Positions 5,669-15,586 of a stretch of 64,000 nucleotides of DNA are shown piece by piece. Numbering within the stretch: the first letter of the stretch is position 1; each line of letters begins with the position of its first letter. The stretch is from Terriglobia bacterium (GTDB lineage Bacteria > Acidobacteriota > Terriglobia > Terriglobales > Acidobacteriaceae): assembly GCA_020073465.1 (NCBI GenBank), contig JAIQFC010000005.1, positions 124,001-188,000 on the forward strand. Reading direction: 5' to 3'. The notes beneath the pieces were generated by a model that had not been told where the DNA came from, did no database searches, and worked only from the letters and a program-made list of their open reading frames with translations. The position numbers and the translations under genes were made by a program.

Positions 5669-5743
5669 GGCGCGGTACCCAAGTGGTAAGGGAGAGGTCT
5701 GCAAAACCTTTATGCGTCGGTTCGATTCCGACCCGCGCCTCCA
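5669..5743 (+). tRNA. tRNA-Cys (GCA), integration target
   Basis: The acceptor GGCGCGG pairs with CCGCGCC, the anticodon loop CTGCAAA gives GCA, the T loop is TTCGATT, and CCA is encoded. The last 49 bases (5695-5743) are repeated exactly at 15538-15586, so this is the attachment site of the element that follows. The gene remains intact at this end. Confidence 0.95.
5695..5743. repeat. Attachment site copy at the integrase end
   Basis: This is the 3' part of tRNA-Cys, from the anticodon stem to the encoded CCA. It is identical over 49 bases to 15538-15586; identity breaks one base before it (G versus A) and right after the CCA. Tyrosine integrases commonly use tRNA 3' ends in this way, and the integrase gene ends 142 bp inward. 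Confidence 0.9.
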
Positions 5744-5884
5744 GATTTCTCAACGCAGTAGCGTGCAGCGCTTGCACTTAGCTCGATTCCTTCCTTTGCG
5801 CTCGATTGCCCTCATTTGTGTTCAAACGAGTCTGTTTTGACATCGGAGTTGGCCCAAAGTTGGCCCAAGAATTCCGGAGGCTCA

Positions 5885-6979
5885 TCAGTTCACTTTCTCG
5901 CTGGCGTGCTGCCAGTCGAACTGCAGGTTCGCGGCCTGCGACTTTCGCATGGTTTCCGCGTAGGTGGCCATCGCCGCCTTCTTGTGTTCCTCGGTCGGGT
6001 GGACGTAACGCTGCACGATGCGAATGGAACTGTGACCGAGAATTGCGGCCAATGTGGCCAGGTCGATGCCGGCTTGCGCCATGCGCGTCGCGAAGGTGTG
6101 GCGCAGATCGTAGAGCACGAAGGCCAGCCCAGCTTTTTCGCACACTGCATTGTGAGCATTGTTCAATCGAGCAACATGCTCGCCGGCTTTGCGACTGGCG
6201 GGGAAAATCCAAGATGACTCAGCAGCCGTCATTCTGCGCGCGAGGATCTCCCGACTTTCCGGTGTCAGGTCCAGCGTGCGCCGCGCGGCGGTAGACTTCC
6301 CCCAGCGAATCTGCAGCTGGCCGCGTTCCAGGTCGACGTCCGATGAGCCGAGGGTCAACGCCTCTTCCGGCCGCATGCCTTGGTTCAGCATCAATCGCCC
6401 CAAGTCGAAAAGATCGCGGCGCCGTTCGGCGAAGCTGAAATATTTCTTCTCTTCCTCCGGAGTGAGCACGTGGATGCGGACCGCATCCCCCTCGGAAGGA
6501 ATCTTGACGCGACGGATAGGGTTGTCGCGCGTCCAGTTCTGCTGCATGGCATATTTGAAAAAGGTGCTGAGCGCATGCAGATCGTGGCGCAGCGTGATGT
6601 CGCGAACCTTGTGTTCGTTCACGCGCCAAGTTTTGTAGGCTTCAATCCTGCCTTCGTCGATCGCGCTGACCGGCTGCCGGGCGAAGAACACAATCGCGCT
6701 GGCCAGGCTGACTCTAATCCGCCGGCTGCTGTTGGGATGGTCGCGGTAATTGGCCAGGGTCCACTCGAAGAACTCCTTCGCGGCCGTGTTGAATTCCCGG
6801 ACAGCAACACGTTTGGTGGGCGCATGGCCCTCAAGGAGTGCTGTCCGGTGTTCGATTTCCTTGCGCAGGGCCGCGCTCTCGTTTCGTTGTGTGGCGGCCA
6901 AGCTTGTGCTTCCCGCGTAGTTGCGTCCGTCCAGCTGAAAGCGGTAATGCCACTTCCCGTTCTTGTTGCGCAGTGCCAT
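5885..6979 (-). CDS. int: Tyrosine recombinase (phage integrase)
   Basis: The 364-aa protein has a short N-terminal arm-binding region (about 1-60), a SAM-like core-binding domain (about 65-160) and a catalytic domain. Catalytic residues visible are Arg in LNQGMRPEEALTL, the RHTFATRMAQAG box, LGHSSIRIVQRY and the nucleophilic Tyr in QRYVHP near residue 330. It catalyses integration and excision between the tRNA-Cys att repeats. It is the last gene of the element and reads toward the tRNA, the usual arrangement. Its start overlaps the preceding HTH gene by about 149 bp in another frame. An upstream start cannot be excluded, but MALRNKNGKWHYRF is a typical integrase N-terminus. Confidence 0.93.
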   Translation of the reverse strand: MALRNKNGKWHYRFQLDGRNYAGSTSLAATQRNESAALRKEIEHRTALLEGHAPTKRVAVREFNTAAKEFFEWTLANYRDHPNSSRRIRVSLASAIVFFARQPVSAIDEGRIEAYKTWRVNEHKVRDITLRHDLHALSTFFKYAMQQNWTRDNPIRRVKIPSEGDAVRIHVLTPEEEKKYFSFAERRRDLFDLGRLMLNQGMRPEEALTLGSSDVDLERGQLQIRWGKSTAARRTLDLTPESREILARRMTAAESSWIFPASRKAGEHVARLNNAHNAVCEKAGLAFVLYDLRHTFATRMAQAGIDLATLAAILGHSSIRIVQRYVHPTEEHKKAAMATYAETMRKSQAANLQFDWQHASEKVN

Positions 6980-7235
6980 CGGTCACCTTCTGCAGCTTGG
7001 CTGCGAGCCACGCGTTGACGCGTTCTTTCGGGTACCAGATTTTTCTTCCGACCTTCAGGAATGGCGGTCCAACGTGCAGACAGCGCCAAGTCGCCAACGT
7101 CGCCGGCGAGATTTCCAGGTTCGAAGCCAACTCCTCGGGAGAGAGCAGCGTCTCTCTGAGGGTCAACTCCGAATCTGCCGCGCCGATCCTATCAGCAACG
7201 TCAAGCGCCGGGCTGTGATCTCGCGACAAACTCAT
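6831..7235 (-). CDS. Excisionase/AlpA-like helix-turn-helix protein
   Basis: Residues about 30-82 (LLSPEELASNLEISPATLATW, then FLKVGRKIWYPKERVNAWL) form the winged HTH seen in excisionases and AlpA-type regulators. Such proteins steer integrase directionality or activate the element. The last 50 residues are translated from the integrase N-terminal region in another frame and have no protein-like character. Thus the gene overlaps int by 149 bp, unusually long. Either the tail is a neutral run-on or a frameshift has removed an earlier stop. It directly precedes int, as xis genes often do. Confidence 0.7.
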   Translation of the reverse strand: MSLSRDHSPALDVADRIGAADSELTLRETLLSPEELASNLEISPATLATWRCLHVGPPFLKVGRKIWYPKERVNAWLAAKLQKVTDGTAQQEREVALPLSAGRTQLRGKHKLGRHTTKRERGPAQGNRTPDSTP

Positions 7236-7256
7236 GACAGCATTTCCCGATGTGGG

Positions 7257-14233: not shown

Positions 14234-14980
14234 CTACGCCTCGCCCGCAAGCCATGATTTCAAGAAGGCCAACTTCTCCTGCAGCGGGATTTGCTCGAGT
14301 ACCAGGTGCACCCGCTGCTCGAGGAGCGCGTCGTGACCATTGGCGTGGCCGTTCCCGCCGTTCGCGGGAGTAGTGCTGGTCGAATGGTTGCTGGCCGGCG
14401 CGTGGTGGACCGCTGCAGGCGCGCCGTCCGGCGGCTTCGTGGCGGCCGCCGCCGGACGGGAATGCACGCGTTGGGCGTCGCCTTCGATGCCACCGTGAAG
14501 TGCGCATTTTCCCGACTTGTTATTAGCCGCCAGGCGTTCCGAACATCCCGGGGTGCTGCAGGTACCGTGCTGCGCGGGTGTGGCGCGGCGCGCCCCGCCG
14601 CCGTGAAGTTGGCAGCGGCCGGTCGTGTTGTTATTGGCGAGCTTCTTATCGCAACCCTGTTGCGCACACATGCGGATCTGCGCCATGGCGTCCTCCTCTG
14701 TACTAGTGATTACTCTGCCGGCCCTCTTCTGCTGCAGAAGTGATGCCGCCACCGCAATTTTCTCTTCCGCGGTGGGCGGCGCAAGGTTGGGGCGGCGCGC
14801 GATCGCGGCCGCCACCGCGACGCCCGCGGCGATGGCATCCGGCGCCTTCGCCTTTACCATCACTCGCTGCAAAACGGGACAAGGAATTCCGTCATCGCAA
14901 AAAATGCAGATCTCACGGCCGTCATCGTCGCGAACAGCCGCCACGCAGGTCGGATGTTGGCAAGCCTGGCAGCTGCTCAT
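14234..14980 (-). CDS. Cys/His repeat protein, zinc-finger-like
   Basis: A 248-aa protein with an N-terminal Cys cluster (CQACQHPTC ... CIFCDDGIPC, residues 4-34) and two copies of a C-x4-C-x-x-x-L-x-x-NN-x-x-G-x-C-x-x-H unit: CAQQGCDKKLANNNTTGRC and CSTPGCSERLAANNKSGKC. Each could bind one zinc ion. The C-terminal 80 residues are low in complexity, then helical (LLEQRVHLVLEQIPLQEKL). I do not know its function; position upstream of the capsid suggests a regulator or packaging factor. Its ATG overlaps the stop of a small upstream ORF (ATGA). Confidence 0.6.
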   Translation of the reverse strand: MSSCQACQHPTCVAAVRDDDGREICIFCDDGIPCPVLQRVMVKAKAPDAIAAGVAVAAAIARRPNLAPPTAEEKIAVAASLLQQKRAGRVITSTEEDAMAQIRMCAQQGCDKKLANNNTTGRCQLHGGGARRATPAQHGTCSTPGCSERLAANNKSGKCALHGGIEGDAQRVHSRPAAAATKPPDGAPAAVHHAPASNHSTSTTPANGGNGHANGHDALLEQRVHLVLEQIPLQEKLAFLKSWLAGEA

Positions 14981-15183
14981 GCGAGGAAGGTTAAGCTGAG
15001 TTGCTCCGGAAGTCGATCCCGTTTTCTACGCCGCTGCGCGGACCTCACCGGCGCCGCCGGCAGAGTCGCACTCGCAGCCGCGACGGCCGCGACCAGCACA
15101 AAACTTTTCCACGGCTCAAAGATCCCACGTTGGGGGAGTCGCGCGGAGGCCTCCAAGTCACCACGTTTGCCGAATTCGCTCAC
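14977..15183 (-). CDS. Possible small membrane protein, coupled to the Cys/His gene
   Basis: A 68-aa ORF starting at GTG with a weak TGGGG ahead of it. A hydrophobic segment (SFVLVAAVAAASATLPAA) is flanked by basic residues. Its stop overlaps the next gene's start in an ATGA arrangement, which is the main support for it being real. No family recognised; a random ORF in GC-rich DNA is possible. Confidence 0.35.
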   Translation of the reverse strand: MSEFGKRGDLEASARLPQRGIFEPWKSFVLVAAVAAASATLPAAPVRSAQRRRKRDRLPEQLSLTFLA

Positions 15184-15537
15184 AGGATGCCCCAGGACGA
15201 ATTATGGCATCCGGATGGTCACGAGAAAGACGATCACCGCGCAGGCGTCACCGTAGCGCGCGCCGTGGGTGTTTTTTTGGAGGGGTGCGCGCCCGCGTGA
15301 GAGTCAGTGAAGTGGTGGGCCGCGAAGAATGCAACAGTCTCACCACTGGTGAAGTCAGTTCACCAGTACTGGTGAAGCCAGTTCACCAGACTGGTGAAGC
15401 CAGTTCACCAGCTGTTGCGTATTTTCCGCGCGAGAAATCGGCAGCCGGTGTAACCTGAGTTGGCCCAAAACTGGCCCGAAAGGGGTCATCGGGAGGGTGC
15501 GGTGTGGCAAGGAAACGCAGTTAGGGGCGCTAGGGAA
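15184..15537. other. Non-coding right end of the element
   Basis: About 350 bp between the last small ORF and the right attachment site. It contains three palindromic 21-bp repeats (15346-15411). No gene is supported. Transcription of the element probably begins near here on the minus strand. Confidence 0.45.
15346..15411. repeat. Palindromic 21-bp repeat, three copies
   Basis: Units at 15346-15366, 15369-15389 and 15391-15411 with arms CTGGTGAA and TTCACCAG. The first two are identical to those at 9500-9543, including the 2-bp TA spacer between them. The cluster ends 126 bp before the right attachment repeat. Confidence 0.9.
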
Positions 15538-15586
15538 AGGTCTGCAAAACCTTTATGCGTCGGTTCGATTCCGACCCGCGCCTCCA
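15538..15586. repeat. Attachment site copy at the right end
   Basis: Exact 49-base copy of the tRNA-Cys 3' end (5695-5743), marking the right end of the element. It lacks the 5' half of the tRNA, so it is not a gene. Chromosomal sequence resumes immediately after. Confidence 0.9.

What the first reader, a model, noticed from the sequence alone, without database searches (positions are those of the whole stretch)
5695..15586. Small tRNA-Cys element carrying capsid and head protease but no packaging or tail genes
Exact 49-bp tRNA repeats bound 9,843 bp with integrase, excisionase-like HTH proteins, small phage-type genes, a ClpP-like protease and an HK97-type capsid. Reading all frames, I found no terminase, portal, connector, tail or lysis genes. 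Phage satellites that carry capsid genes and borrow the rest from a helper are known, but those described usually also carry packaging-related head genes. A minimal protease-plus-capsid set in an acidobacterium-like host would be new. Intact att copies and genes argue against simple decay.
Basis: partly seen in the sequence, partly recalled or inferred. Interest (0 to 1): 0.85.

Follow-up and report, generated by a model that had tools for sequence, protein, structure and literature searches.

The report
Self-shelled satellite lacking portal and motor
A 9.8 kb piece of mobile DNA in a bacterial tRNA gene carries genes for a virus shell protein and the protease that matures it, but none that we could recognise for the shell's DNA entry port, packaging motor or tail, so it likely spreads as a parasite that would borrow those parts from a helper virus.

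Summary
Exact 49-bp repeats (5695-5743, 15538-15586) bound a 9,843-bp insert at tRNA-Cys, and a same-genus genome has the same site empty. The insert encodes a tyrosine integrase, two HTH proteins, a ClpP-type head protease and an HK97-type capsid. Pfam and PHROGs show no portal, large terminase or tail gene; profiles built here for portal and terminases also find none.

Simple decay is unlikely. In a 58-capsid tree a 99/99-supported branch sets apart the window's clade (38 rows). None of its seven readable loci has a portal; 18 of 20 on the other side do. Bounded 14-16 kb elements with other partial head sets occur in related genomes.

Best reading: a satellite that likely makes its own shell and takes portal, motor and tail from a helper. 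It is not a cfPICI, which by definition carries portal and terminases. The closest precedents are mycobacterial phiRv/phiBN42_1 elements; phiBN42_1 has nearly the same gene set, so "entirely new" is too strong. No helper, excision or particle was shown. Noticed: a phage-like cluster shared across the family, possibly a gene transfer agent.

The parts
5669..5743 (+). tRNA-Cys(GCA), target gene, kept whole at the left end
   Evidence: ARAGORN; 75/75 identical in the empty site of G027
5695..5743 (+). attL, 49-bp copy (3' part of tRNA-Cys)
   Evidence: empty-site alignment
15538..15586 (+). attR, 49-bp copy
   Evidence: the host flank right of it continues the empty site of G027
5885..6979 (-). 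tyrosine integrase, 364 aa
   Evidence: PF00589 9.4e-25, phrog_1 9.3e-51
6831..7235 (-). HTH_17 protein, excisionase-like (ORF; not called by my gene finder)
   Evidence: PF12728 3.4e-6; phrog_66 7.1e-6; weak phrog_57 (small terminase) 0.0046
7257..7967 (-). 236-aa protein, possibly replication module (inferred from its CxxC zinc-ribbon-like motif); its homologues may share contigs with the ClpP head protease in 4 cases
   Evidence: no family; 18 homologues besides itself; 4 contig-length coincidences, but the shifted control reached 4 once or more
7915..8448 (-). 177-aa protein, possibly replication initiation (guess)
   Evidence: predicted gene, weak score; no family
8631..9269 (-). 212-aa basic, repeat-bearing protein of unknown function
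   Evidence: predicted gene; no family
9500..9543 (.). two 21-bp operator-like palindromes CTGGTGAANNCAGTTCACCAG
   Evidence: in the window only here and at 15346-15411; 0 expected by shuffles
9980..10324 (-). second HTH_17 / excisionase-type DNA-binding protein
   Evidence: PF12728 6.6e-5 and TIGR01764 2.7e-4, both below their cut-offs
10233..10248 (.). 16-bp perfect palindrome TGCCGATATATCGGCA, copy 1
   Evidence: only two copies in the window, 0 expected
10531..10546 (.). 16-bp perfect palindrome, copy 2
10284..10604 (-). small protein, unknown
   Evidence: predicted gene (with a later start)
10561..10962 (-). 133-aa protein, unknown
   Evidence: predicted gene
11638..11895 (-). small head-module gene; homologue of the gene just downstream of the capsid in prophage fragment L113 and of small genes beside the capsid in L097 and L117
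   Evidence: tblastn 38% over 65 aa; profile hits; gene called
11862..12044 (-). 60-aa ORF overlapping the protease stop by ATGA; weak candidate
   Evidence: not called as a gene
12041..12748 (-). ClpP-type head maturation protease, 235 aa; Ser-88, His-111 and Glu-160 invariant in the 21 aligned sequences
   Evidence: NF045542 over cut-off; phrog_133 1.6e-68; alignments
12753..13910 (-). HK97-fold major capsid protein, 385 aa, with about 110-residue helical N-terminal arm
14234..14980 (-). 248-aa protein (208 aa by the gene finder's start) with two Cys/His (CxxHGG) motifs, upstream of the capsid; candidate regulator or packaging adaptor (guess)
   Evidence: gene called; no family above cut-off; HGGxSTG domain 0.0056
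15346..15411 (.). three 21-bp operator-like palindromes upstream of the head genes

Best explanation
This is a 9.8 kb element integrated at tRNA-Cys that carries an HK97-type capsid gene and a ClpP-type head protease gene but no recognisable portal, terminase or tail gene, and it likely spreads as a phage satellite that would build its own shell and borrow portal, packaging motor and tail from a helper phage. Shown: the bounded insertion, the empty site, the intact open frames, the family assignments, and the capsid's membership of a clade whose seven readable loci all lack portals. Inferred: the capsid, whose helical N-terminal arm stands where HK97 has its built-in scaffold, assembles proheads; the protease then removes that arm. 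HK97 capsid and protease alone are known to be enough to make proheads (recalled). A helper's portal would enter one vertex during assembly, and the helper's terminase would fill the shell. Inferred: two sets of the same 21-bp palindrome, ahead of the head genes and ahead of the candidate replication genes, are operators that switch both units on together when a helper appears.
For: Integration: 49-bp repeats and an exact empty site in same-genus G027, with tRNA-Cys 75/75 identical and the ABC-transporter protein on its left 95% identical. Gene content. Capsid clade: IQ-TREE of 58 capsids, branch 99/99; window side 38 rows, with 0 of 7 readable loci (window included) having a portal, against 18 of 20 on the other side (Fisher 4e-5, which ignores relatedness). 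Among the 27 labelled rows the tree needs 3 changes of portal state; the portal label needs 3 changes against a shuffled mean of 15.6, 0 of 500 as low. No PF04860 portal anywhere in the genomes of the six other window-side loci (two of these genomes are only 80-82% complete). PF03354 TerL is found in G566 but not in G072, G207, G233, G410 or G557. The capsid/protease pair lies on contigs of identical length in 7 of 32 capsid hits, against a mean of 0.24 and a maximum of 2 with shifted lengths. Comparable att-bounded partial-head elements: G410 16.0 kb, G207 16.1 kb; G388, G342, G665. HK97 fold with N-terminal helices. Palindromes found only in the element within this window.
Against: No excision, circular form, particle or helper was observed. 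Stretches without a called gene add up to about 2.5 kb of the 9.8 kb, the largest 9.27-9.98 kb, as some decay would leave; some of this holds the palindromes. The protease lies downstream of the capsid, reversed from the order in L113, so the module was rearranged. No TerS was found, whereas several related elements carry one, so how its DNA is chosen for packaging is unexplained. Two of the six other window-side loci are weak: in L099 and L115 a contig end lies 0.4 and 1.3 kb from the capsid. The other 31 window-side rows have unknown neighbours, and with those rows counted the no-portal label itself is not clearly clustered (7 changes, shuffled mean 8.6, 37 of 500 as low). Three of the six host genomes (G072, G207, G233) do have phrog_2 terminases on other contigs, so their hosts are not free of phages.
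Confidence: 0.7

Rival explanations
1. A prophage remnant. A full phage integrated at tRNA-Cys and lost portal, terminase and tail by deletion, leaving capsid and protease by chance.
For: About 2.5 kb without called genes; capsid and protease in reversed order; nothing shows mobility. Prophage fragment L113 keeps portal, ClpP protease (40% identical), capsid and the small gene in ordinary order.
Against: Both att copies and the recognised genes are intact. The capsid belongs to a deep clade whose readable loci lack portals, so the loss looks old and shared. The protease-capsid pair recurs on 7 other contigs by length. Bounded partial-head elements are repeated in other genomes.
Confidence: 0.15
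2. An interference island. Capsid and protease are made not to carry the element but to poison or mis-size an invading phage's heads.
For: A prophage protein that blocks virion assembly is reported (PMC10884400, search listing only). A shell gene without portal would compete for the helper's parts. A TIR-domain protein lies in the related G207 element (assigned to L098:18265-19143 by its sequence).
Against: No PADLOC defence model matches capsid or protease among 10 element proteins; only the HTH protein matched one (mad1, 2e-4). The window capsid is at most 32% identical to capsids of sequenced phages in the 12 rows seen of 204 records. The element keeps integrase and excisionase-like genes, as expected of something that moves.
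Confidence: 0.08
3. A complete minimal phage whose portal, motor and tail genes are too diverged to be recognised.
For: Several proteins have no family.
Against: No unassigned called gene exceeds 248 aa, too small for known portals (about 400 aa or more) or large terminases (about 500 aa) (sizes recalled).
Confidence: 0.03
4. An encapsulin-like compartment carried on a mobile element.
Confidence: 0.02

Closest known systems
Mycobacterial prophage-like elements phiBN42_1, phiRv1, phiRv2 (phiRv now called candidate PICIs)
   Same: Small (phiRv1 9.3 kb, phiRv2 10.8 kb), with att repeats (phiRv2 at a tRNA) and integrase; phiBN42_1 is listed with integrase, excisionase, primase, prohead protease and capsid among eight ORFs (PMC3986857, passages). 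Integrase-plus-capsid regions are called candidate PICIs (PMC10654092, section 9).
   Different: Different phylum (inferred) and no recognisable primase; relation of the capsids was not tested. Here a capsid clade whose readable loci lack portals is shown.
Capsid-forming PICIs (cfPICI)
   Different: cfPICIs carry portal, connectors, both terminase subunits and HNH (PMC10690885, passages); none of these is found here.
Streptomyces satellites MulchRoom and MiniFlayer
   Same: Satellites with their own capsid gene; MulchRoom has a tyrosine integrase.
   Different: They carry small and large terminase, portal, scaffold and head-to-tail adapter (PMC10690885, passages).
Classical PICIs / SaPIs and P4
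   Same: Small satellites; some SaPIs redirect packaging with TerS, proteobacterial PICIs with an adaptor (PMC10690885, passages).
   Different: They take the helper's capsid protein; this element encodes its own and no TerS was found.

Membership tests
cfPICI | Encodes major capsid protein and head maturation protease | tested here: met
cfPICI | Encodes portal and head-tail connectors | tested here: not met
   Pfam and PHROGs list none for 19 ORFs; local portal profile none
cfPICI | Encodes small and large terminase and HNH | tested here: not met
   none in the element; weak HTH-only PHROG small-terminase match at 0.0046 not counted
cfPICI | Packaged in own capsids with helper tails | not testable with these tools
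   needs induction and particle analysis
[quoted passage not shown]
Candidate PICI sensu PMC10654092 (integrase plus major capsid) | Mobilised by a helper phage | not testable with these tools
   not shown experimentally for the published mycobacterial cases either (section 9 of that paper)
Full temperate prophage | Portal, TerL and tail genes | tested here: not met
   the same local profiles for TerL and portal score together in 12 other loci as positive controls
Decayed prophage | Broken phage genes or att sites | tested here: not met
   capsid, protease and integrase are open and of full length; both att copies intact; empty site exact. Gaps of about 2.5 kb without called genes leave old loss possible
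Encapsulin | HK97-fold shell without maturation protease (recalled definition) | tested here: not met
   maturation protease adjacent; phage capsid families

The most novel reading that the evidence does not exclude
A lineage of soil-bacterial satellites lives on shell genes alone: a deep, portal-free capsid clade (38 sequences, 99/99) whose members build their own heads and plug in whichever portal, motor and tail a helper supplies. The window's 9.8 kb protease-plus-capsid element is the leanest bounded case seen here. The shell has thereby become a part that travels separately from the portal it must receive.
Probability: 0.35. Interest if true: 0.82.

Novelty: new variant of a known kind. 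Interest (0 to 1): 0.6.

Why it matters
Head assembly in tailed phages is thought to start at the portal vertex (recalled). A lineage of capsids that travels without a portal gene would mean that shells can be matched to foreign portals, and would give a test system for that interface. It would also show that defining capsid-carrying satellites by a full head set misses a graded series: portal+protease+capsid, TerS+capsid, and protease+capsid elements all occur in related genomes here. That two pattern scans of IMG/VR found no close relative of this capsid suggests that viral catalogues overlook such elements.

Tried and rejected
Hidden TerS, portal or TerL: profiles built from relatives gave no window hit at E up to 10. 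L097's integrase was first taken as part of its capsid element; repeats showed that it belongs to a neighbouring tRNA-Lys insert, so G072 is a partial locus without its own integrase in view. Genome-contig scans gave no relative. IMG/VR: capsids at most 32% identical, 3 loci at 25-27% with a tighter alignment. IMG/VR relatives of the protease are mostly in portal-bearing contigs: 61 of the 83 loci scanned (the best 80 of 585 from the protease scan, 3 from the capsid scan) hold a portal. G+C does not set the element clearly apart from the flanks. Sigma-70 scan uninformative.

Rows dropped or uneven: of 31 other genomes hit, 17 were fetched and 14, nearly all among the weaker, were not. P0033 (distant, long branch, on the portal side) was left out of the trees. 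L138 bore a provisional label and was relabelled portal after its profile hits. Protein lists: only the 7999 candidates sharing most words were scored; only the best 120 of 1532 protease hits were seen. Family scans of relatives took 55 of 61 predicted proteins (A3) and 54 of 56 (A4), short ones left out. The TerS of G410 rests on the local profile, which had taken it in as a member; Pfam lists a single TerS among the 55 proteins. For the empty site, 14 of the 30 other genomes with a GH16 match were fetched; 1 (L139) has the tRNA-Cys beside it, and the other 13 stretches hold no tRNA gene.

Papers: passages seen of PMC10654092 (also section 9), PMC3986857, PMC10690885, PMC11389934, PMC11924767, PMC5900883; search listings only for the others. 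The primary cfPICI paper and the SatelliteFinder paper were not read (recalled or cited second hand).
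Full report
What is there. The window is stretch 124001-188000 of contig C47 in an unnamed 5.9 Mb genome. A 55-nt repeat with one mismatch, 49 nt of it exact, recurs 9,843 bp apart. The left copy is the 3' part of an intact tRNA-Cys. The called genes between the copies all lie on the minus strand. In transcription order they are: a Cys/His protein, the capsid, the protease, a small head-type gene, several small genes with an HTH protein, candidate replication genes and the integrase next to the tRNA; an excisionase-like HTH ORF lies just before the integrase. 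The capsid and the protease exceed curated NCBIfam cut-offs (10 proteins). Scans of 19 ORFs gave no portal, large terminase, tail or lysis match. Profiles built here for TerL, portal and TerS find nothing in any ORF of the element.

It is an insertion. In G027, of the same genus, the ABC-transporter gene left of the site (95% identical protein), tRNA-Gly, tRNA-Cys (75/75 nt) and the GH16 gene follow each other with no element. The joined window flanks align across the junction, right through the end of the tRNA and into the flank beyond attR.

Relatives. A protein search found 32 further capsids with E up to 1e-3; 30 are 40-59% identical and two are at 27-29%. Two carry organism names, a Terriglobales and a Sulfotelmatobacter MAG, from which I infer an acidobacterial host. 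Genome searches in the relatives (61), class (399), family (398), G072's family (89), order (397) and phylum (396) gave few close relatives; these sets overlap. I read 26 loci around them (with extensions). Local profiles (for L138 and L113) sort them. Twelve hold TerL, portal, protease and capsid together (L101, L102, L106, L107, L110, L111, L112, L114, L117, L118, L119, L121). L138 holds the same four, and L113, a short contig, has portal, protease and capsid with connector- and tail-like genes (by eye). Four have portal, protease and capsid without TerL (L103, L105, L108, L120). Eight have a capsid without portal (L097, L098, L099, L100, L104, L109, L115, L116); of these only L116 has TerL.

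Whole-genome searches agree for the genomes they covered. PF03354 hits the capsid contigs of all seven TerL-bearing genomes given (G566, G468, G492, G563, G545, G318, G124) and none of G000, G410, G207, G388, G076, G342, G665, G237, G557, G401, G072 or G233. Where phrog_2 terminases occur in the genomes without TerL at the capsid locus, they lie on other contigs (G665, G557 and G566 were not in that search).

Bounded relatives. G410 carries a 16.0 kb element (23-bp repeat at tRNA-Ser) with integrase, excisionase-like gene, a possible TerS and capsid. G207 carries a 16.1 kb element (16-bp repeat at the 5' end of tRNA-Ile) with integrase, capsid, an AAA protein and a TIR protein. G388 (34 bp, 16.4 kb), G342 (22 bp, 14.2 kb) and G665 (42 bp, 15.7 kb) carry portal-protease-capsid elements at tRNA genes. 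Pfam on 55 of 61 predicted proteins from the G410, G207 and G237 elements lists 20 families in all: three capsids, three integrases, one TerS, one HK97-gp10-like among them, and no portal or TerL. The PHROG tables show only the first 25 of 68 families for these and of 52 for the G388, G342 and G665 proteins, so they are not proof of absence on their own.

The tree. In 58 capsids (window, 31 database proteins, 26 loci) one branch with support 99/99 separates 38 rows, window included, from 20. On the far side 18 of 20 loci have a portal. On the window's side 0 of 7 do, counting the window itself. The six other host genomes on that side have no PF04860 portal at all. The 27 labelled rows need 3 changes of state. 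The 31 database rows have unknown neighbours, and if they are counted as a separate state the no-portal label alone is not clearly clustered. L099 and L115 end close to the capsid. With those limits, the simplest history is an old split of a capsid lineage that no longer travels with a portal.

The pair. Contig lengths of capsid and protease hits coincide exactly in 7 cases (10660, 110281, 9257, 3225, 538845, 85556, 6655), where shifted lengths give 0.24 on average and 2 at most. The 236-aa gene coincides with the protease in 4 more; its shifted control has a mean of 0.27 but a maximum of 4, so that count is weaker evidence. The MAG names also agree for the 538845 and 85556 contigs. So the window's pairing is unlikely to be a single accident.

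A possible helper. The same genome has one portal and one phrog_2 terminase match, both in a phage-like cluster on contig C19. Its portal has counterparts in all eight stretches fetched from other family genomes and its TerL in seven; its capsid was seen in two of them. In five the cluster lies beside the same dehydrogenase E2 gene. It may be a gene transfer agent or a domesticated prophage. Nothing links it to the element beyond being there.

Verdict. The element is real and integrated, and better explained as a lean satellite than as wreckage. It fails the cfPICI definition on portal and terminases, but works, I infer, on a similar plan with still fewer parts. Mycobacterial phiRv/phiBN42_1 elements are the published precedent, so I call it a new variant of a known kind. 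The portal-free capsid clade is the novel part; the listings of my paper searches showed no such description, within the library searched.

Noticed in passing
G000 contig C19:211-236 kb (L095, L096); counterparts L130-L137: A phage-like cluster (TerL, portal, capsid, tail-type genes, large fibre-type protein) has counterparts in eight other family genomes: portal in 8 of 8 stretches, TerL in 7, capsid in 2; in 5 of 8 it lies beside the same 2-oxo acid dehydrogenase E2 gene. Looks vertically inherited: possible gene transfer agent or domesticated prophage.
   Followed up: partly
L103, L105, L108, L120: Elements with portal, protease and capsid (TerS in L105 and L120) but no TerL by local profile or PF03354; L103, L108 and L120 have att repeats at tRNA genes, 14-16 kb.
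   Followed up: partly
L116 (G566:C143:46000-62827): Locus with TerS, TerL and a window-side capsid but no portal or protease by local profile; no PF04860 portal anywhere in that genome, which is 82% complete.
   Followed up: partly
L098:18265-19143: TIR-domain protein inside the capsid-bearing G207 element, a possible anti-phage cargo.
   Followed up: no
window:10233-10248 and 10531-10546: Two copies of a perfect 16-bp palindrome TGCCGATATATCGGCA near the HTH gene, absent elsewhere in the window; possibly autoregulatory operators.
   Followed up: no
protease hit list: Several protease homologues lie on contigs of about 9-11 kb (for example 9839, 10325, 10345, 10503), close to the size of this element; they might be complete small elements.
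   Followed up: no
L097:12215 to L124:2682: A separate 7.2 kb integrase-bearing insert at tRNA-Lys with a 23-bp repeat in G072, next to but not including the capsid locus.
   Followed up: no
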